Assembly (NCBI GenBank): GCA_030528645.1
Contig: JAUMYM010000006.1
Location: 1-61,135 of the forward strand
Length of the DNA: 61,135 bases
Source: Erysipelotrichaceae bacterium
GTDB lineage: Bacteria > Bacillota_I > Bacilli_A > Erysipelotrichales > Erysipelotrichaceae
Reading direction: 5' to 3'
The notes under the pieces were generated by a model, which ran no database searches, had not been told where the DNA came from, and saw only the letters and a list, made by a program, of their open reading frames with translations. Made by a program: the position numbers and the translations under genes. Positions 46,024 through 59,346 of the stretch are shown piece by piece. Position 1 is the stretch's first letter; the number at the start of each line of letters is the position of its first letter.

Positions 46024-47136
46024 TCAATAGCTAATCTTATCGTTTATATTAGCTGTCCATATGATTTGTAAACCGTCTTTTATGGTTGAATATTGTACAT
46101 CCATTTTATTTTTTTCATCTAAAATCCAAATAACATCAATAGTATCTTCAGGATGTGCTTGGTTATAAGTCTCAATAAAAGCTAAACCTTGTTGATAATC
46201 CATTGTAAATAAGGTCGTACTTAAAGCATCCGCATGACCACTATCACTTCCTAAAATAGTAACTGAGTAAAAGTGTTGAGCAGGGAATAGGGTATCATTA
46301 TCAATAATGTGATGATACCTTTTTAAATCACTTGTGATAAAGAAGTTTTGATAATCGCCTGAAGTTACAAAGGCTCTTGAATCACTTAGTTTGATTGAGG
46401 CAATACTTGCATTATGTTGTTGACTACGAGGGTGTGTAATTCCAATGGACCATGGATGATGATCTGGCTTATTGTTGATCGTACGAATATTACCGCCAGC
46501 ATTAACGGAGGCGTGTTTTAAACCTAATGCTTCTAATTCTAAGGCAACCACTTCAGCTGCATAGCCTTTTGCAATACCACCGACATCTAAGCTAACGCCT
46601 TTTTCTTTGATGAAAACAGTCTTTTGTTCTTCATCAATTTCAATGAAATCCCATCCTGTTTTCAAACTAGCCTTTTGAAGTTCTTCTATCTTTGGAAGTT
46701 TAATTTCATCCAGTTTATTTTCCTCGGTAAGCAGTAAAGCATCTTCACGATATGTATGCCAGATCTTTAATACAGAGCCCATGGTGATATCAAACTCACC
46801 ATTGGAAAGTTCACTAAAGTAGCGGGCTTTTAGTAATAAATCGATGATTTCTTGTTGAACCTTTACGGGTTGGATACCAGCATATTTATTAATGGTATAT
46901 AGGTTATTCATATCGGGATATTCATGATAAATATCGAATAATTGATTTAATTCTTTAAAACGTTTGGTTGTATGGTTGAAATATGTTTCAAAGTCTTTTG
47001 CATCTTTTGTATAAGCAATTAACTGTATAAAGGTATTAAAGCCAGCATCGACTGTAATATTTGAATATTTTTTTAATGGAGTATGACATCCTGTTAAAAG
47101 GAGTATTGTCAATAGGATAAATAGTATTTTTTTCAT
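46024..47136 (-). CDS. apbE: FAD:protein FMN transferase ApbE, lipoprotein
   Basis: ApbE attaches FMN through a phosphoester to threonine in Dxx(S/T)(G/S)AT motifs of Rnf and Nqr subunits outside the membrane. The lipoprotein signal ends LLTGC with Cys17. ApbE motifs are SNGEFDITMGSVLKIW, SLDVGGIAKGYAAE, SVNAGGNIRTI and HADALSTTLFTMDYQQGLAF, a variant of the usual A-D-A-LST segment. At 370 residues it is normal. It is divergent from the rnf operon, whose products carry four candidate target motifs. Confidence 0.94.
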   Translation of the reverse strand: MKKILFILLTILLLTGCHTPLKKYSNITVDAGFNTFIQLIAYTKDAKDFETYFNHTTKRFKELNQLFDIYHEYPDMNNLYTINKYAGIQPVKVQQEIIDLLLKARYFSELSNGEFDITMGSVLKIWHTYREDALLLTEENKLDEIKLPKIEELQKASLKTGWDFIEIDEEQKTVFIKEKGVSLDVGGIAKGYAAEVVALELEALGLKHASVNAGGNIRTINNKPDHHPWSIGITHPRSQQHNASIASIKLSDSRAFVTSGDYQNFFITSDLKRYHHIIDNDTLFPAQHFYSVTILGSDSGHADALSTTLFTMDYQQGLAFIETYNQAHPEDTIDVIWILDEKNKMDVQYSTIKDGLQIIWTANINDKISY

Positions 47137-47221: not shown

Positions 47222-48508
47222 ATGTCTTTATTATTAGGACCTATGAGTAAACATTTACCGGGTCATAAAGAACTAACGAGTCATAAAGAGATTATCAAGT
47301 GTAAAGATGTTGATAAAATCTATATACCACTAACGATGGGTACTGCGCTCCTAGAAAAAAAAGTTAGTGAAGGTGACTATGTAAAAGTTGGAACAGTAGT
47401 GGCATTGCGTAATGATCATTTTTATGTTCCGGTCTTTTCAAGTGTCTCGGGCGTTGTTAAGGGTTTTGAAAAACGTATGACATCATCAACAAAGATGGCA
47501 GAGCATATTGTCATTGAAAATGATTTTAAGTATGTTGTAGAAGACTTAACAACCTTATCAGAAGATGCTAGTAAAGAAGAAGTTGTTAATTTCATAAAAG
47601 AAAAGGGTATTGTAGGTTGTGGTGGTGCCGGTTTTCCTACATACTTTAAGTTTGTAAAAACAGATGGGTGCCAAACACTATTAATCAATGCGGTTGAGTG
47701 TGAACCATATTTGACAAGTGATTATTTAAATATGAAAGAAAACTTAGAGGATATGGTGTTAGGTATTAAAACATTATTCCGTATAAGTGGGGCTTCAACA
47801 TGTAAAATAGCGATTAAGAAAACGAAAAAAGAGTTTATTGAACGTATCAAAGAGTTATTTAAGAATGAAACAAATATTGAAGTGGTAGGTGTTTCGGATG
47901 TATATCCTATGGGTTGGGAACGTACTTTAGTGTATGAAGTATTGAAAAAACGTTATGATAAACTTCCGATTGAAGCAGGTTGTATTGTTTCAAACGTTAC
48001 AACAGCAATTAAAACAGCACAGGCTATGCGTACAGGATTGCCAATCGTAGAAAAGATTGTAACTGTTAGTGGAGATGGGATTAAAAGCCCATGTAATGTG
48101 TCGGTTCGAGTTGGTACACCGGTTAGTCATTTGGTAGAACTTTGCCAAGGATATACAACAGAAAATATCCAGTTGATTGCTGGAGGACCAATGATGGGTA
48201 ATGCGATTACAAATGATAATTTTGTAATTACAGCATCAGATAATGGATTAACGGTTTTAAAATATCAAGAAGTAAAATCAATGGCTTGTTTGCGTTGTGG
48301 GGCATGTGTCGATCATTGTCCAAGTGCAATTATGCCTGTGAATATTAACAATGCTGAAAAGACTAAAAATGTCGATCGCTTGCTAAAACTAAATGTAAAT
48401 GCATGTATTGAATGTGGTATGTGTACGTATGTTTGTCCAAGTAAGTTAGATGTTACAGAAGGTGTTCGTCGTGCCAAGAGATTTTTAGCATTGAAGGGAA
48501 AGAAGTAG
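47222..48508 (+). CDS. rnfC: Rnf electron-transport complex subunit RnfC
   Basis: RnfC is the cytoplasmic NADH-interacting subunit of the ferredoxin:NAD oxidoreductase. The flavin/NAD-binding stretch is GIVGCGGAGFPTYFKF. Two 4Fe-4S motifs follow near the end: CLRCGACVDHCPSAIMP and CIECGMCTYVCPSKLD. A barrel-sandwich domain (GDYVKVGTVVALRNDHFYVP) lies near the N-terminus. At 428 residues it is normal. The ATG at 47222 follows GGAGG. It heads the operon rnfC-D-G-E-A-X-B. Confidence 0.95.
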   Translation: MSLLLGPMSKHLPGHKELTSHKEIIKCKDVDKIYIPLTMGTALLEKKVSEGDYVKVGTVVALRNDHFYVPVFSSVSGVVKGFEKRMTSSTKMAEHIVIENDFKYVVEDLTTLSEDASKEEVVNFIKEKGIVGCGGAGFPTYFKFVKTDGCQTLLINAVECEPYLTSDYLNMKENLEDMVLGIKTLFRISGASTCKIAIKKTKKEFIERIKELFKNETNIEVVGVSDVYPMGWERTLVYEVLKKRYDKLPIEAGCIVSNVTTAIKTAQAMRTGLPIVEKIVTVSGDGIKSPCNVSVRVGTPVSHLVELCQGYTTENIQLIAGGPMMGNAITNDNFVITASDNGLTVLKYQEVKSMACLRCGACVDHCPSAIMPVNINNAEKTKNVDRLLKLNVNACIECGMCTYVCPSKLDVTEGVRRAKRFLALKGKK

Positions 48509-48517
48509 GAGGTATTT

Positions 48518-49984
48518 ATGAAGTTTGTATTTAAGCCGTCTCCGAATTATCGTGATAAAAAGTCAACACAGAGTATTATCTTTGAACTTACATTGGGGTT
48601 ATTAGTAGTTTATGCGTTTGGACTTTATAATAGTTTTAAGTTAGGTAGCCAATATGGTATCAATGCGATAGTGTTATTGATTGTTAGTGTTGTGGTATCG
48701 TTTCTAAGTGAATTTGCTTATGCAAAACTAAGAAAGTTAGATCCAATCCAATTCTTTAAAACATCATTTCCATGGGTAACACCATTAATTTTAGTGTTGA
48801 TGGTTCCGGTAAATACATCTGCTTATGCAGTAGGAGCTAGTACCTTTATTGGTGTTGTTTTTGCTAAATTGGTGTTTGGTGGATTTGGTCAAAATATTTT
48901 TAATCCAGCGGGTGTTGGTCGTGCGTTAGTGTTTAGTTCATTTTCTTCTGCTGTGGTTACTGATTTAGTGACTTCAGCAACGCCTACAGCATCATTTGCT
49001 TCTGCTGGATGGATTATGCAAGCAGATCTTTTTGACAAATTTATTGCTCAATTTGGTGGTTTAACCAATATGTTTATTGGTAATTATCCAGGGACATTAG
49101 GTGAAACCAGTGCGTTGTTAATTATGTTAGTGGGAATTGTATTAATCATTCGTAATGTGATTGATTATCGTATTCCTCTTGTGTATTTAGGTACAATTTT
49201 TGCTTCTGCAACCGTGATTGCATTGGTTCGTAATACAGGTATGTATTATCCGTTGTTTCATATCCTAACAGGTGGAGCAATGTTTGGTGCATTCTTTATG
49301 TTAACAGATCCTGTTACCAATCCAACTTCGATTACAGGTCGTATTTTATTTGCTATGGGAAGTGGATTTATTACTGTCTTGATCCGTGTATTAGCAAACT
49401 TACCGGAGGGTGTATTATTCTCTATTTTGATTATGAATATGTTAACACCGGCGATTGATCGTGCATTAGAAGGTAATCAAATTAAAAAGTTAAAAACAAA
49501 TATGATTGCAGTGGTTTCTCTTGCGGTGATTGGTCTTGTAACAATTGGGTTTAGTTCTACCACATTAGAAGCAAAAGAGATTAAAATCGCTGGTGGCACA
49601 ACTGATACATCAAGTTTGTCATTTAGTGAAACCATGAAAGTAATGGATGATTATGTTAAATATGATGCAAAAATCATACGTGTAGAAGGGAATACCTATA
49701 CTGTAGAAGCAAAAGGGTATGGTTTATTAGAAGGTGATGCTTCTCACTTTGATTATGTAAAAAATGTATTTGAAATTGTGATTGAAGATCAAAAAGTCGT
49801 TTCTGTGAAATTTGTTACTTTTGGAGATACGCCGGGAATTGGTGATAAGGTAGATGATGTTTATTTATCAATTTATAAAGGTTTATCTTTAGAGGATGAA
49901 GTAGATGCTTTATCTTCAGCAACTTTTACAAGTAAATCTGTGGTGGCTGCTGTATCTTTAGCACTACAAGAGGCAGGAAAGTAG
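48518..49984 (+). CDS. rnfD: RnfD fused to an extra FMN-binding domain
   Basis: Residues 1-315 are a standard RnfD: multi-helix membrane protein with GGFGQNIFNPAGVGRALVFS and MLTDPVTNPTSITGRILFAM, plus the flavinylation-type motif D149-LVTSAT. Normal RnfD ends near LTPAIDR. Here a further membrane helix (about 329-346) and an exported-type FMN_bind domain (about 383-488) follow, with a second motif D463-ALSSAT. The added domain closely resembles the second domain of RnfG (both hold GYGLLEGD, SHFDY and VTFGDTP). At 488 residues it exceeds the usual 310-350. Confidence 0.93.
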   Translation: MKFVFKPSPNYRDKKSTQSIIFELTLGLLVVYAFGLYNSFKLGSQYGINAIVLLIVSVVVSFLSEFAYAKLRKLDPIQFFKTSFPWVTPLILVLMVPVNTSAYAVGASTFIGVVFAKLVFGGFGQNIFNPAGVGRALVFSSFSSAVVTDLVTSATPTASFASAGWIMQADLFDKFIAQFGGLTNMFIGNYPGTLGETSALLIMLVGIVLIIRNVIDYRIPLVYLGTIFASATVIALVRNTGMYYPLFHILTGGAMFGAFFMLTDPVTNPTSITGRILFAMGSGFITVLIRVLANLPEGVLFSILIMNMLTPAIDRALEGNQIKKLKTNMIAVVSLAVIGLVTIGFSSTTLEAKEIKIAGGTTDTSSLSFSETMKVMDDYVKYDAKIIRVEGNTYTVEAKGYGLLEGDASHFDYVKNVFEIVIEDQKVVSVKFVTFGDTPGIGDKVDDVYLSIYKGLSLEDEVDALSSATFTSKSVVAAVSLALQEAGK

Positions 49985-49993
49985 GTGTAGAAA

Positions 49994-50905
49994 GTGAAGA
50001 AAACAGTTCAATTAATGTTGTTTTTAGCAATTGTTAGTGCAATTGCTGGGGGCATTTTGGGTTATGTCAATAGTATCACTGCACCTGTTATTGAAAAGAT
50101 GGCAATTGCTGCTGAACAAAAGAATTTAGAGTTATTATTTCCAAATGGTGAATTTAAAGCCTTGGAATTTAAGGATGAAACAGGTTTAGTAAAAGGTGTG
50201 TATCAAGTCGAAGGACAAGGGTATGTCTTTAAAGTAGAAACAGTAGGATATAATTCGTCAACCCCAATTGTTTATATGGTTGCCTTTAGTAATGAAGGTA
50301 ATATTATAGGGTTTAAAGAACTACAACAACAAGAAACAAATGGAATTGGTTCTCGTGTATTTACAGATGAATATTCACAGGGCCTACTAAAGAAAACAAA
50401 CAAAGACAATTATGATACTTTAACAGGTGCTACTGTTACAAGTACAGCAGTTGTAAAAGGTTTAAATGCTTCTAGAGATTTATTTAATACCATCAATGGT
50501 CTTGAAAAAGTTGAAACGGTTGAACAAGAACCGAAAGAAGCACAAGCTATAAAAGTTGCGATGAATCAAGATTGGTCATTGTATGATGCGCAAGTTACGG
50601 CAGATGGAAGTGCATATCGTGTAAATGTAAAAGGATACGGATTATTAGAGGGTGATTCTTCTCATTTTGACTATGCAAGAAATGAATTTGTGATAGAAGT
50701 AGAAGATCAAAAGATTAAATCAATTACACTGGTTACTTTTGGTGATACTCCCAATATTGGAGATAAAGCTGTAGAACAAGCCTATTTAGATCAATTTATT
50801 GGAAAAACGATGGATGATGAAGTTGATCTTGTTACAGGTGCAACTTATACAAGTAATAGTGTGATTGCTTCTGTGTTAGCTGCATTACAAGCAGCTGGGC
50901 AGTAG
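49994..50905 (+). CDS. rnfG: RnfG with two FMN-binding domains
   Basis: RnfG carries a covalently bound FMN outside the membrane. One N-terminal helix (about 7-25) is followed by two FMN_bind domains where the usual RnfG (about 190-210 residues) has one. Domain 1 ends in D141-TLTGAT and domain 2 in D278-LVTGAT, both matching the ApbE target pattern. Domain 2 is much more similar to the tail of RnfD than to domain 1, so it arose by duplication between the two genes. Starts GTGAAG at 49994, with a weak ribosome site (TAGGTG). Confidence 0.92.
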   Translation: MKKTVQLMLFLAIVSAIAGGILGYVNSITAPVIEKMAIAAEQKNLELLFPNGEFKALEFKDETGLVKGVYQVEGQGYVFKVETVGYNSSTPIVYMVAFSNEGNIIGFKELQQQETNGIGSRVFTDEYSQGLLKKTNKDNYDTLTGATVTSTAVVKGLNASRDLFNTINGLEKVETVEQEPKEAQAIKVAMNQDWSLYDAQVTADGSAYRVNVKGYGLLEGDSSHFDYARNEFVIEVEDQKIKSITLVTFGDTPNIGDKAVEQAYLDQFIGKTMDDEVDLVTGATYTSNSVIASVLAALQAAGQ

Positions 50906-50915
50906 GAGGTAATGT

Positions 50916-51566
50916 ATGAATAGAATGAAGAATTTCACTGCTGGTTTTATTCGTGAAAATCCAGTATTTGGTTTATATTTAGGTATATGTTCAACACTTG
51001 CGATTTCTACTTCTTTAAATAATGCTTTAGGTATGGGAATTGCGGTTATCTTGGTATTAATCGTTTCAAATGCGGTGATTTCATTAATGCGTAATATCAT
51101 TCCTGATGATATTCGTATTCCAGTGTATATTGTTATTATTGCAGCGATTGTAAAAGCGATTGAAATGTTAATACATGCGTATATGCCAAGTATTTATAAT
51201 GCTCTTGGTGTATTTATTCAGTTAATTGTTGTAAACTGTATTATTCTAGGGCGTGCAGAAGCTTTTGCCTCAAAAAACAATGTATTTGATTCTATGCTGG
51301 ATGGTTTAGGCATGGGCTTAGGTTATACATTTTCTCTTGTTATGATTTCTGTGATACGTCAAGTCTTAGGAACAGGTATTATTAATCTAACCAACCCAAT
51401 GACAGATCAATTGATTTTCCAATTACGTATTATTCCGGAGAATTATAAGATTTCTATGTTTACAACTTCGACAGGTGCCTTTTTAACCTTTGCACTATTG
51501 GCTGCAGCATTAGCGGCTTACAAAAATAGTTTAGAACCAAAAACAAAGAAGAAAGGAGTAAAATAA
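50916..51566 (+). CDS. rnfE: Rnf complex membrane subunit RnfE
   Basis: RnfE and RnfA form the inverted-repeat membrane core that holds a 2Fe-2S centre. The 216-residue protein has about six helices, with NPVFGLYLGICSTLAISTSL near the start (a cysteine at the expected cluster position), IVVNCIILGRAEAFASKNN in the middle and MGLGYTFSLVMISVIRQVLG later. AGGAGGT precedes the ATG. Its stop overlaps the rnfA start (TAATG). Confidence 0.95.
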   Translation: MNRMKNFTAGFIRENPVFGLYLGICSTLAISTSLNNALGMGIAVILVLIVSNAVISLMRNIIPDDIRIPVYIVIIAAIVKAIEMLIHAYMPSIYNALGVFIQLIVVNCIILGRAEAFASKNNVFDSMLDGLGMGLGYTFSLVMISVIRQVLGTGIINLTNPMTDQLIFQLRIIPENYKISMFTTSTGAFLTFALLAAALAAYKNSLEPKTKKKGVK

Positions 51567-52141
51567 TGCAAACAATATTTACGATTTTCTTAACAGCGAT
51601 TTTAATCAATAATGTTATCTTATCTAAGTTTTTAGGTATGTGTCCATTTCTTGGTGTAAGTCGTAAGACAAGTAGTGCCCTAGGTATGGGCTTTGCAGTA
51701 ACGTTTGTTATTGTTGGGGCATCTATATTTACATATTCATTGTATTATTTAGTGCTTGTACCATTAAATTTAGAATATATGGACTTAATTACCTTTATTC
51801 TAGTAATTGCATCTTTTGTACAATTTACGGAGATGTTTATTAAAAAGTTTTCTCCAGCTTTATATAAGTCATTAGGAATCTATCTTCCTTTGATTACAAC
51901 AAACTGTGCAGTGTTATATGTTGCATTAGATAATATTTCAAGTAAGTATGATTTCTGGCAAATGTTAGCAAGTGCATTTGGAGTACCTTTAGGCTTTACG
52001 TTAATTCTTTATATCTTCTCATGTATTCGTGAGCGTTTAGATGAATCAAATGTTCCATTACCATTTATCGGTAATCCGATTGCTTTGGTGTGTGCAGCTA
52101 TTATGGCACTAGCGTTTTCAGGATTGGCAGGGTTGATTTAG
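51566..52141 (+). CDS. rnfA: Rnf complex membrane subunit RnfA
   Basis: RnfA is the inverted partner of RnfE in the membrane core. The 191-residue protein has six helices and the family motifs NNVILSKFLGMCPFLGVSRK, with the 2Fe-2S-type cysteine, and LPLITTNCAVLYVAL. Length is exactly the family norm. AAAGGAG precedes the ATG, which lies on the rnfE stop. The next gene begins one base after its stop. Confidence 0.96.
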   Translation: MQTIFTIFLTAILINNVILSKFLGMCPFLGVSRKTSSALGMGFAVTFVIVGASIFTYSLYYLVLVPLNLEYMDLITFILVIASFVQFTEMFIKKFSPALYKSLGIYLPLITTNCAVLYVALDNISSKYDFWQMLASAFGVPLGFTLILYIFSCIRERLDESNVPLPFIGNPIALVCAAIMALAFSGLAGLI

Positions 52142-52142
52142 T

Positions 52143-52325
52143 ATGACGTATATTTATGCAATAGTATTCGTTGGTGTATTAGCGATGTTTTATGCCTTAG
52201 GCTATTATTTAAATCATAAAACACCACTTCCTAAAGAATGTCAAGATTTAAAATTAGAATGTGAAGGATGCAATATTACTTCTTGTGAAGTACATCCAGT
52301 ACATGATATTAAGGAGGAAGAGTAA
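52143..52325 (+). CDS. Small cysteine-bearing membrane protein in the Rnf operon
   Basis: I do not recognise this 60-residue protein. One membrane helix (about residues 3-23) is followed by a hydrophilic tail with four cysteines (33, 40, 43, 48; spacing C-x6-C-x2-C-x4-C) and an acidic end. The pattern could bind Fe-S or metal. It starts one base after rnfA and ends two bases before rnfB, so it is surely co-translated. Tight packing and co-conserved spacing suggest a bona fide Rnf accessory subunit; no published name is known to me. Confidence 0.8.
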   Translation: MTYIYAIVFVGVLAMFYALGYYLNHKTPLPKECQDLKLECEGCNITSCEVHPVHDIKEEE

Positions 52326-52327
52326 AC

Positions 52328-52636
52328 ATGTTAAATGCTGTTTTAGTTATGTTAGTAGTTGGTGGTTTGATGGGGCTTGTTTTAGGAGTAGCTTCTATCT
52401 TATTCCATGTAGAAATTGATAATCGTATTGATCAAGTGATTTCCATGCTTCCAGGTATTAACTGTGGTGGATGTGGTTATGCCGGATGCAAGGGGATGGC
52501 AGAAGCGTTAGTATCACAAGATACAAATACAGTTAGTCTATGTAAGCCATCAAAAATGGATGCAAAAATAAAGATTGCGGAGTATTTAAATTCTACACCT
52601 GGTCCAGATGGAAAAGTATTAAATGTAAAACCTTAG
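52328..52636 (+). CDS. rnfB: Short RnfB lacking the ferredoxin-like domains
   Basis: RnfB normally receives electrons from ferredoxin. An N-terminal helix (about 4-25) and the RnfB-specific 4Fe-4S motif LPGINCGGCGYAGC (Cys 46, 49, 54, with Cys72) are present. The protein then ends at 102 residues, where family members (about 180-330) go on with two or more 4Fe-4S ferredoxin modules. The stop is followed at once by a strong terminator, so this is not a frameshift. AAGGAGGAAG precedes the ATG. Confidence 0.9.
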   Translation: MLNAVLVMLVVGGLMGLVLGVASILFHVEIDNRIDQVISMLPGINCGGCGYAGCKGMAEALVSQDTNTVSLCKPSKMDAKIKIAEYLNSTPGPDGKVLNVKP

Positions 52637-52663
52637 TAGTGCATGTTTGCACTACTTTTTTTT
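52635..52663 (+). terminator. Terminator of the rnf operon
   Basis: A 9-bp perfect stem AGTAGTGCA / TGCACTACT (52635-52643 and 52648-52656) and eight Ts. It begins inside the rnfB stop codon. Confidence 0.92.
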
Positions 52664-56565: not shown

Positions 56566-56595
56566 ATATTGTTTGTAGCTAAGGAGGAAACTATT

Positions 56596-57264
56596 ATGGA
56601 TCTAACAAACAAAGAATTTTTTGATGCATGTGCAAGTGGTGATTTTGCCAAAGTGTGTGCGGCTGTTTCAAAGGGAGCAGATGTTAATGTTAAAAATGGA
56701 GATGGACGTACGGGTTTAATGCGTAGTGCAAAACGTGGGTATGAAGATATTGTTCGTTTCTTATTAGACAATAACGCAAATGTTCGAGCTCGTGATAAAG
56801 ATAATAAGACTGCTTTAATGGGTGCAGCTAAAAAAGGGCATTTAGATATTTGTAAGTTACTAATTGAAAGCGGGGCTGATGTTGATGCTCACGATAACAA
56901 TGGTCGTAATTCACTGATGCGTGCAGCTTTTTTAGGTCATGTGGATGTATGTGAGTTGTTAGTGAGTCATAAAGCAGATGTTAATGCGAAAGATAATCGT
57001 GGACGTAGTGCATTATCAGAAGCTGTTTTAGCGTTTAAAGTGGATGTTATTCATTTTTTGATTAATGCCGGTGCAGATATTAACGCGAAAGATAATAAAG
57101 GGTGTACAGCGCTTATGAGAGCTAGTTACGGCGGTTATGTAGATTTAGTTATTTACTTATTAAATAAAGGTGCAGATAAAGATATTGTTGACCATGAAGG
57201 AAATAAAGCAATTCATTATGTTCGTGAACATTGTTTCTTAGAACTAAAGGATTATTTGAAGTAG
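56596..57264 (+). CDS. Ankyrin-repeat protein
   Basis: The 222-residue protein consists almost wholly of ankyrin repeats, about six of 33 residues. Repeating units such as NKTALMGAAKKGHLDICKLL, NNGRNSLMRAAFLGHVDVCE and GADINAKDNKGCTALMRASY are regular and well conserved. No signal peptide or membrane segment is present, so it is a cytoplasmic binding platform. The ATG at 56596 follows AAGGAGG. It is nine bases before the EF-G-like gene. Partners are unknown. Confidence 0.92.
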   Translation: MDLTNKEFFDACASGDFAKVCAAVSKGADVNVKNGDGRTGLMRSAKRGYEDIVRFLLDNNANVRARDKDNKTALMGAAKKGHLDICKLLIESGADVDAHDNNGRNSLMRAAFLGHVDVCELLVSHKADVNAKDNRGRSALSEAVLAFKVDVIHFLINAGADINAKDNKGCTALMRASYGGYVDLVIYLLNKGADKDIVDHEGNKAIHYVREHCFLELKDYLK

Positions 57265-57273
57265 GTGATTAGC

Positions 57274-59346
57274 ATGAAAGACTATTTAGCAAGTGAAGTT
57301 CGCAATGTTGTTTTGTTAGGGCATAGTGGAAGTGGTAAAACAAGTTTAGTAGAAGCTGCGTTATATTTTACAAAAGCGATTGATCGTTTAGGTAAAATTA
57401 GTGATGGTAACTGTACATTGGATTATGACCAAGAAGAAATGAAGCGTCAACAATCTGTATTTACAGCTTTAGCGCCGGTAGAGTGGTTAAATTGCAAAAT
57501 TAACTTTATTGATACTCCAGGTTATTTGGATTATGAAGGAGAACAAAGAGCTGGAATTCGTGTTGGAGATAATGCTTTGATTGTTGTTGGTGCAAAAGAA
57601 GGCGTAGAGGCTGGCACACTAAAGGCTTGGAAGATTGTCAATCGTAAAAAATTACCGACGATTTTCTTTATTAATAAAATTGACGAAGAAAATGCTTCGT
57701 TTGATAAGACATATAATGAGCTAAGAGAACATTTTGGTAAGACGGTTATTCCATTTGAAATGCCAATTGTAGAAAATGGTGTTGTAGTGGGTTCTGTTAA
57801 TATTTTAAGAAATAAGGCTTGGTATTATGCTGATCGTGAAACGGCTAAGGAAGTTCCTGATCATTTAAAAGAGGCAGTAAGTGTGTATTATCAACAAATT
57901 GCTGAAGCAATTGCAATGCAAGATGAAGAGTTAATGGAAAAGTTTTTCTCAGGAGAAACATTTGATGAAAAAGAAGTAGCTAAGGGTTTACGTATTGGTG
58001 TACGTAATGGTGATATACGTCCAGTTTATTGTGGTAGTGCAACCCATTCAACAGGTATTCGTCGTTTAATGGATTTAATCATTGAGTATTTCCCTTCTTA
58101 TGCTGAAAAAGGAGTTGTGGAAGCGAAAGATCTTGATGGTAATCAAGTGTTACTTGAGACAAATGAAAAGGAAAGTTTATCAGCATTTGTCTTTAAAACA
58201 ATTATTGACCCGTTTGTTGGTAAAATTTCATTCTTAAAGGTCATGAGTGGAACGTTAATTAGCGATTCTGTTGTTTATAATTCAAAGAAAGAACAAAATG
58301 AAAAGATTGCTCAAATTTATTTAATTAAAGGTAAGAACCAAGTTGCAGCAGGTAAATTGTTTACCGGAGATATTGGTTGTGTGGTTAAACTTTCTAATAC
58401 AGATACAAATGATACATTGTGTTTAAAAAATAAAGTGGTAGTATTTGATGAAATTGAGTTTCCAAAACCAATGCTTGGTGTTGCGATTTGGCCAAAAACA
58501 AAACTTGATGAAGATAAGATGAGTTTTGCGGTTGCTAAAATGTTAGAAGAAGATAAATCTTTAAGATTAGATAAAAACGTTGAAACACACGAACAAGTCT
58601 TATATGCAATGGGTGATCAAGCGATTGATGTTGTGATTAATAAGTTAAAAACAAAATATAAAGTAGAAGTTACAACAACACAGCCAAAAGTTCAATACCG
58701 TGAAACAATTCGTGGTAAAGTAGAGGCAGAAGGTAAACATAAAAAACAATCAGGTGGTGCAGGACAATATGGTCATGTATGGATTCGTTTTGAACCATGT
58801 GAAAGTGAAGAAATGGTATTTGAAGAAGAGGTGTTTGGTGGTGCAGTTCCTAAACAATATTTCCCTGCAACGGAAGCAGGCTTGAGAGAGTGTATGAATA
58901 AGGGAGTATTGGCTGGATATAAAGTTGTAGGTGTAAAAGCAACGCTTTATGATGGAAGCTATCACGATGTCGATAGTAAAGAAATTGCCTTTAAAGCAGC
59001 AGCAAGGTTAGCTTATAAGGCAGGTATGCCAAAAGCAAAACCTGTGTTACTTGAGCCGGTAGGTAAGGTTATTGTGGAAGTTCCTGAAGAATATACAGGA
59101 ACAATTATTGGTGATTTTAATAAACGTCGTGGAATGATTGTCGGTATGGAATTAAATGATGATAAAGATCAAGTAATTACCGCGGAAGTTCCAATGTCTG
59201 AAATGCAAAAGTATGCGACAGATTTAAGAAGTATGACACAAGGTCGTGGTGTATATAGTATGGAATTTGATCGCTATGAACAAGCTCCGGCCCATATTTC
59301 TGATAAGGTAATTAAAGAAGCAGTAAAAGACGAAGACGAAGATTAA
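57274..59346 (+). CDS. EF-G-like translational GTPase (FusA2 type)
   Basis: A 690-residue EF-G paralogue. G1 reads GHSGSGKTSL in place of the canonical EF-G AHIDAGKTT, G3 is DTPGYLDY and G4 is NKIDEE. Domain IV contains GGAGQYGHVWIRFEPC and the C-terminal domain ends SMTQGRGVYSMEFDRYEQ. The altered G1 and G3 motifs are those of the FusA2/EF-G-like group rather than housekeeping EF-G or TetM-type protection proteins. The ATG at 57274 follows AGGTGAT. It is co-transcribed with the ankyrin gene. Role unproven. Confidence 0.92.
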   Translation: MKDYLASEVRNVVLLGHSGSGKTSLVEAALYFTKAIDRLGKISDGNCTLDYDQEEMKRQQSVFTALAPVEWLNCKINFIDTPGYLDYEGEQRAGIRVGDNALIVVGAKEGVEAGTLKAWKIVNRKKLPTIFFINKIDEENASFDKTYNELREHFGKTVIPFEMPIVENGVVVGSVNILRNKAWYYADRETAKEVPDHLKEAVSVYYQQIAEAIAMQDEELMEKFFSGETFDEKEVAKGLRIGVRNGDIRPVYCGSATHSTGIRRLMDLIIEYFPSYAEKGVVEAKDLDGNQVLLETNEKESLSAFVFKTIIDPFVGKISFLKVMSGTLISDSVVYNSKKEQNEKIAQIYLIKGKNQVAAGKLFTGDIGCVVKLSNTDTNDTLCLKNKVVVFDEIEFPKPMLGVAIWPKTKLDEDKMSFAVAKMLEEDKSLRLDKNVETHEQVLYAMGDQAIDVVINKLKTKYKVEVTTTQPKVQYRETIRGKVEAEGKHKKQSGGAGQYGHVWIRFEPCESEEMVFEEEVFGGAVPKQYFPATEAGLRECMNKGVLAGYKVVGVKATLYDGSYHDVDSKEIAFKAAARLAYKAGMPKAKPVLLEPVGKVIVEVPEEYTGTIIGDFNKRRGMIVGMELNDDKDQVITAEVPMSEMQKYATDLRSMTQGRGVYSMEFDRYEQAPAHISDKVIKEAVKDEDED

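What the first reader, a model, noticed from the sequence alone, without database searches (positions are those of the whole stretch)
52328..52636. RnfB reduced to its membrane helix and first Fe-S motif
All recognised RnfB proteins I know carry, after the CGGCGYxGC segment, two or more 4Fe-4S ferredoxin modules that take electrons from ferredoxin. Here the protein stops at 102 residues, and a strong terminator starts within the stop codon. The complex may therefore dock ferredoxin directly, use another subunit or use a separate small ferredoxin. This would be a simplified Rnf architecture.
Basis: partly seen in the sequence, partly recalled or inferred. Interest (0 to 1): 0.8.

Follow-up and report, generated by a model that had tools for sequence, protein, structure and literature searches.

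The report
Rnf complex with single-cluster RnfB
This gene makes a very short but genuine version of RnfB, the electron-entry part of a membrane energy pump; it is shared by a whole branch of Firmicutes, works by precedent in Thermotoga maritima, and travels with a tiny undescribed cysteine-rich membrane protein that deserves study.

Summary
RnfB is 102 aa (52328-52636): one membrane helix plus one PF04060 Fe-S domain, followed by a terminator. It sits in an otherwise intact rnfC-D-G-E-A operon. The genome holds no second PF04060 protein. The short form is neither an error nor unique. 53 short RnfBs read from the same order are 87-106 aa, and 120 of the 124 RnfB-bearing genomes in a 392-genome phylum sample have the short form. 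On an RnfA+RnfE tree, 104 short-B and 16 long-B operons separate at one branch. The soluble carrier therefore most likely docks directly on the remaining cluster. This genome has PFOR and a flavodoxin but no detectable small ferredoxin, so flavodoxin is the likely carrier here. New: a 60-aa protein (S, 52143-52325; one helix, four cysteines) occurs in 113 of 120 short-B genomes and 1 of 272 others, usually between rnfA and rnfB, and never in long-B operons. It is probably a cofactor-assembly factor, less likely an electron-entry subunit. RnfD and RnfG carry two extra FMN domains.

The parts
52328..52636 (+). rnfB, short form: TM helix (model residues 2-25), FdI-type 4Fe-4S domain, about 12-residue tail; Cys 46, 49, 54, 72
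   Evidence: 53 order-level relatives of 87-106 aa
52448..52549 (+). PF04060 Fe-S domain of RnfB (only copy in the genome)
52143..52325 (+). gene S: 60 aa, one TM helix, then N-x2-TP-x-P ... C33-x6-C40-x2-C43-x4-C48; undescribed companion of short rnfB
51566..52141 (+). rnfA (191 aa); cluster cysteines 26 and 114 invariant
50916..51566 (+). rnfE (216 aa); cluster cysteines 25 and 108 invariant
49994..50905 (+). rnfG (303 aa) with two FMN_bind domains (flavinylation-type motifs TGATVT at 144, TGATYT at 281)
48518..49984 (+). rnfD (488 aa): membrane part (TSATPT at 152) fused to a C-terminal FMN_bind domain (residues 418-484, SSATFT at 466)
47222..48508 (+). rnfC (428 aa from the ATG at 47222): RnfC_N, Complex1_51K, SLBB, two CxxCxxCxxxCP motifs
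46024..47136 (-). apbE, FMN transferase, divergent from rnfC
52635..52656 (+). intrinsic-terminator-like hairpin closing the operon

Best explanation
This is an ion-translocating Rnf complex whose RnfB is the minimal, single-cluster form. The RnfB domain that receives ferredoxin in Clostridium or Acetobacterium is absent. A reduced soluble carrier made by pyruvate:ferredoxin/flavodoxin oxidoreductase docks directly on the mobile FdI 4Fe-4S domain of RnfB (inferred; by precedent from T. maritima). In this genus the carrier is probably the roughly 140-residue flavodoxin; in most relatives it is probably a small ferredoxin. The electron then follows the usual path: RnfA/E 2Fe-2S, RnfG FMN, RnfD flavins, RnfC, NAD+, with Na+ or H+ export. 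The extra FMN domains on RnfD and RnfG may also hand electrons to secreted flavin reductases. The companion protein S most likely helps insert an Fe-S cluster into this type of complex. Shown here: gene content, domain content, conservation of the cluster cysteines, lineage-wide conservation, a single split on the tree. Inferred: docking, choice of carrier, direction of electron flow, role of S.
For: Only one PF04060 in the genome. Short RnfB in 53/53 order-level loci chosen as short and read in full, 87-106 aa, and in 120 of 124 RnfB-bearing genomes of the phylum sample. Single short/long split on the RnfA+RnfE tree, SH-aLRT 98. All four RnfA/E cluster cysteines invariant in 104/104 short-B operons, and both RnfC Fe-S motifs in 101/101, so the electron path is kept. 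T. maritima precedent: RnfB of 10.56 kDa, same gene order, active with clostridial ferredoxin and Na+-pumping (PMC7414866). In C. tetanomorphum FdI is the mobile shuttle to RnfA/E (PMC9588780). Carrier: Fer4_7, Fer4, Fer4_13 and FdxA models find only PFOR and RnfC in the genome; a flavodoxin and a PFOR are present.
Against: No biochemistry was possible. The genome is 97.5% complete in 28 contigs, so a small ferredoxin gene could be missing, though the sister genome G001 also gave no FdxA-family match. The T. maritima RnfB sequence could not be fetched, so kinship between it and this clade was not tested. S does not match the NqrM family by Pfam. Extra FMN domains could mean that a different electron outlet dominates.
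Confidence: 0.6

Rival explanations
1. S is a structural electron-entry subunit: its four-cysteine motif holds a cluster and, together with short RnfB, replaces the lost ferredoxin domains.
For: S lies between rnfA and short rnfB in 53/53 order-level operons, in 0 of 18 long-B operons, and co-occurs with short B genome-wide (113/120 against 1/272). TM helix plus cysteines that are invariant in 52/52 of the order.
Against: In four genomes S is a lone gene next to housekeeping genes, away from rnf. In two genomes one S serves two rnf operons. Outside the order the first cysteine is often lost. T. maritima-type activity is explained by RnfB alone. Weak Pfam likeness is to FeoB-associated Cys-rich proteins.
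Confidence: 0.17
2. The complex chiefly runs as an NADH- or carrier-driven exporter of electrons to extracytosolic flavin reductases through the extra FMN domains, so the ferredoxin input domain became dispensable.
For: Extra FMN_bind domains on RnfD and RnfG; an enlarged RnfD or RnfG in 67 of 115 short-B operons; three secreted FMN_bind reductases in this genome, one confirmed as FMN_bind + FAD_binding_2; multi-flavinylated RnfG already proposed as a side branch (PMC8238504).
Against: Many short-B operons have ordinary RnfD and RnfG. A few long-B operons also have an enlarged RnfD. The RnfA/E path and its cysteines are fully conserved.
Confidence: 0.17
3. The missing ferredoxin modules are supplied by a detached subunit or small ferredoxin encoded elsewhere.
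For: Most relatives in the order have small ferredoxins.
Against: This genome has no Fer4-type protein other than PFOR and RnfC.
Confidence: 0.05
4. Truncation by assembly error, frameshift or pseudogene.
Against: Second assembly of the genus identical in length; over 100 independent genomes, some single-contig, have the same length; conserved tail.
Confidence: 0.01

Closest known systems
Rnf complex of Thermotoga maritima (Kuhns et al. 2020, PMC7414866)
   Same: Gene order rnfCDGEAB; RnfB of about 10.6 kDa with one predicted 4Fe-4S centre; a fermenter
   Different: No report of an S-like gene or extra FMN domains there (not testable here, sequence not held); this genome lacks a detectable small ferredoxin
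Rnf of Clostridium tetanomorphum / Acetobacterium woodii (7zc6, 9eri)
   Same: RnfA, C, D, E, G homologous with conserved cofactor motifs; RnfB N-terminal helix and FdI align
   Different: Their RnfB continues with a polyferredoxin domain (274 and 333 aa chains); no S was found in any long-B operon examined
Na+-NQR with NqrM
   Same: Core homologous; NqrM is also a small membrane protein needed for the RnfA/E-type 2Fe-2S cluster (PMC12174285)
   Different: No NqrF or NqrA; S does not match PF04400 NqrM
Multi-flavinylated RnfG clusters (Meheust et al. 2021, PMC8238504)
   Same: More than one FMN_bind domain in RnfG
   Different: Here RnfD also carries a fused FMN_bind domain and RnfB is minimal

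Membership tests
Rnf complex (RnfABCDGE) | All six subunits in one operon | tested here: met
   order C-D-G-E-A-S-B
Rnf complex (RnfABCDGE) | Cys pair in RnfA and in RnfE for the intramembrane 2Fe-2S | tested here: met
   104/104 short-B operons
Rnf complex (RnfABCDGE) | RnfC with NADH/FMN domain and two 4Fe-4S motifs | tested here: met
Rnf complex (RnfABCDGE) | Flavinylation-type motifs in RnfD and RnfG, and ApbE present | tested here: met
   motif only, flavin not shown
RnfB family | N-terminal TM helix plus PF04060 FdI with four cysteines | tested here: met
   TIGR01944 66.5 bits against a cut-off of 68.7, because half of the profile is absent
RnfB with C-terminal polyferredoxin (Clostridium/Acetobacterium type) | Two or more further 4Fe-4S modules | tested here: not met
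T. maritima-type minimal RnfB | About 10-11 kDa RnfB with one predicted 4Fe-4S | tested here: met
   102 aa, one PF04060; published description
T. maritima-type minimal RnfB | Common descent with the T. maritima subunit | not tested
   T. maritima sequence not available with these tools
Rnf complex (RnfABCDGE) | Reduced ferredoxin or flavodoxin:NAD+ activity coupled to ion transport | not testable with these tools
   needs biochemistry
NqrM (for protein S) | Match to PF04400 | tested here: not met
   30 members scanned, no match at E up to 5
FeoB-associated Cys-rich membrane protein (for protein S) | Match to PF12669 | tested here: inconclusive
   8 of 30 members weakly, best E 0.0013; the window protein does not match

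The most novel reading that the evidence does not exclude
Short-RnfB Rnf complexes of this class form a distinct Rnf type with a seventh, undescribed gene S that is dedicated to it (an Fe-S assembly factor or an electron-entry subunit). In ferredoxin-free members such as this genus the complex is driven by flavodoxin docking straight onto the FdI cluster.
Probability: 0.45. Interest if true: 0.65.

Novelty: new variant of a known kind. Interest (0 to 1): 0.45.

Why it matters
RnfB is described as the ferredoxin acceptor through its C-terminal polyferredoxin domain. A whole class of Firmicutes manages without that domain, which shows that the minimal T. maritima form is not a thermophile oddity. 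It also gives a natural minimal system for asking where the carrier docks. The companion S is a specific, testable candidate for a missing Rnf maturation factor or subunit. A genome with PFOR and Rnf but no detectable small ferredoxin offers a clean test of flavodoxin-driven Rnf.

Tried and rejected
S as NqrM: no PF04400 match. A search for NqrM in genomes reached through other loci, meant to give a comparison set, found none over the cut-off, so no profile comparison of S with NqrM was possible. S against solved structures: no match. Fold search with the RnfB model (pLDDT 71): nothing significant; corrinoid Fe-S proteins and NFeoB at E above 1, uninformative. PPR proteins in the sequence search of solved structures are repeat artefacts. 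Assembly error or pseudogene rejected on relatives. The 390-570 aa PF04060 proteins of relatives are another family (not RnfB) and were left out of the counts. Literature searches for a short RnfB in Erysipelotrichia, Mollicutes or Turicibacter found no description, but most subscription journals are not in the library.

Full report
What is there. The ORF at 52328-52636 (+) encodes 102 residues: a membrane helix and one PF04060 Fe-S domain (residues 41-74, E 2.6e-11) and nothing more. Its best solved relatives are the RnfB chains 7zc6_B, 8ahx_B and 9eri_B, and the match covers only their N-terminal helix and FdI segment. An AlphaFold2 model of modest confidence (pLDDT 71) shows helices 2-25, 32-40, 53-63 and 77-89 and a loose tail from 90. 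The gene ends the operon rnfC-D-G-E-A-S-B; a terminator-like hairpin starts at 52635, overlapping the stop codon. The divergent neighbour is apbE. The other subunits look intact: RnfC has its NADH/FMN domain and two cluster motifs, RnfA and RnfE each keep two cysteines, RnfD and RnfG keep flavinylation-type motifs.

Is it an error? No. The genome (1.38 Mb, 97.5% complete) has no other PF04060 protein. In the order, open frames of roughly 90-150 codons are the rule; 53 such loci read in detail give RnfBs of 87-106 residues, median 102. In a phylum sample of 392 genomes, 120 of the 124 genomes with a true RnfB have the short form; only four have the long form alone. The genus sister (RQZE01000010.1, Erysipelotrichaceae bacterium OH741_COT-311) is identical in length. 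On a tree of RnfA plus RnfE, which contains no RnfB sequence, 104 short-B and 16 long-B operons part at a single branch with SH-aLRT support 98. Long-B operons inside this order sit with those of Clostridia and other phyla, as expected for transfer (inference). The outgroup is small and the search was the quick one, so a single origin is consistent with the data rather than proven.

Prior art. Kuhns et al. 2020 report that the T. maritima RnfB is 10.56 kDa with one predicted 4Fe-4S centre, in an operon of the same order, and that the purified complex transports Na+ and takes electrons from clostridial ferredoxin (PMC7414866). Vitt et al. 2022 state that this RnfB consists only of the FdI domain, and assign FdI as the mobile shuttle between the polyferredoxin part and RnfA/E (PMC9588780). 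The 2025 review describes RnfB's C-terminal domain as the ferredoxin acceptor with two to seven clusters (PMC12174285). So a single-cluster RnfB is known and active. I found no report that a whole class uses it (open-access library only).

The companion protein S. Between rnfA and rnfB lies a 60-residue ORF (52143-52325) with one helix and four cysteines. It was found in 52 of the 53 order-level short-B loci with a single-sequence search (one of them is the window's own genus) and in the last one with a profile. In the order-level alignment N24, T27, P30 and the four cysteines (window numbering) are invariant; the one exception is the Erysipelothrix-type copy found by profile, which has three cysteines. 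S was found in none of 18 long-B operons. In the phylum sample 113 of 120 short-B genomes and 1 of 272 others have S. These genomes are related, so the p-value printed there is not a measure of independent events. Of the seven without a hit, five have a small cysteine-bearing ORF at the same place that scores below threshold. In four genomes S is a lone gene next to housekeeping genes while the rnf operon lacks it, and in two genomes one S accompanies two rnf operons. That distribution favours a factor acting in trans, such as an Fe-S assembly factor comparable in role to NqrM of Na+-NQR, over a fixed subunit. But S does not match the NqrM family, and only weakly matches the FeoB-associated Cys-rich family. 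The 40 class-level loci were picked by S hits, so they show where S sits, not how often it occurs.

Which carrier? In this genome the models Fer4_7, Fer4_13 and Fer4 find only PFOR (1164 aa) and RnfC; the FdxA-family model finds nothing here or in the sister genome, while 189 of 209 genomes of the order have a match, many of them small ferredoxin-sized frames. A flavodoxin and an ODP/flavodoxin A-type flavoprotein are present. Flavodoxin-driven Rnf has been proposed for Treponema pallidum on the same reasoning (PMC7512555). I therefore favour PFOR, then flavodoxin, then the RnfB FdI cluster, in this genus, and a small ferredoxin in most relatives. This is inference.

Extra flavin domains. RnfD carries a fused FMN_bind domain and RnfG has two; an enlarged RnfD or RnfG occurs in 67 of 115 short-B operons examined, some of them near-duplicates. 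The genome also encodes three FMN_bind proteins of about 600 residues with lipoprotein-like N-termini; one was confirmed by Pfam as FMN_bind plus FAD_binding_2. A side exit of electrons to these reductases fits the proposal of Meheust et al. for multi-flavinylated RnfG (PMC8238504) and is untested.

Verdict. The minimal RnfB itself is a known kind. What is new is its reach across a class, the close company of S, and a member without detectable small ferredoxin.

Noticed in passing
52143-52325: Gene S, 60 aa, TM helix plus four cysteines, conserved companion of short rnfB across the class; no named family fits well.
   Followed up: yes
48518-50905: RnfD fused to an FMN_bind domain and RnfG with two FMN_bind domains; in other loci RnfD with three FMN_bind domains (L156) and RnfE fused to FMN_bind (L136).
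   Followed up: partly
L278:7943-11437, L287:1444-1893, L288:718-1923 (window's own genome): PFOR, a flavodoxin and an ODP-family flavoprotein, but no small ferredoxin detectable in the genome.
   Followed up: partly
L278:5447-7243, L279:5293-7155, L280:3759-5570 (window's own genome): Three FMN_bind proteins of about 600 aa with lipoprotein-like N-termini that look like extracytosolic flavin reductases; one lies about 0.7 kb upstream of PFOR.
   Followed up: partly
L228:9125-9688 (G537); also G414:C151:30814-31344: RnfB with two PF04060 domains in tandem, an alternative way to extend the short form.
   Followed up: partly
L215:2197-6498, L245:3332-6676: RnfG-like proteins of 1434 and 1114 aa within rnf operons (at least three FMN_bind domains in the first).
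   Followed up: partly
L217, L220, L223, L225: S as a lone gene beside housekeeping genes in genomes whose rnf operon lacks it.
   Followed up: partly
L168-L175: Long-RnfB (260-270 aa) rnf operons inside the same order that group with Clostridia and other phyla, probably by horizontal transfer.
   Followed up: partly
56569-57264: Ankyrin-repeat-like protein (231 aa) directly upstream of an EF-G-like GTPase (57265-59346).
   Followed up: no
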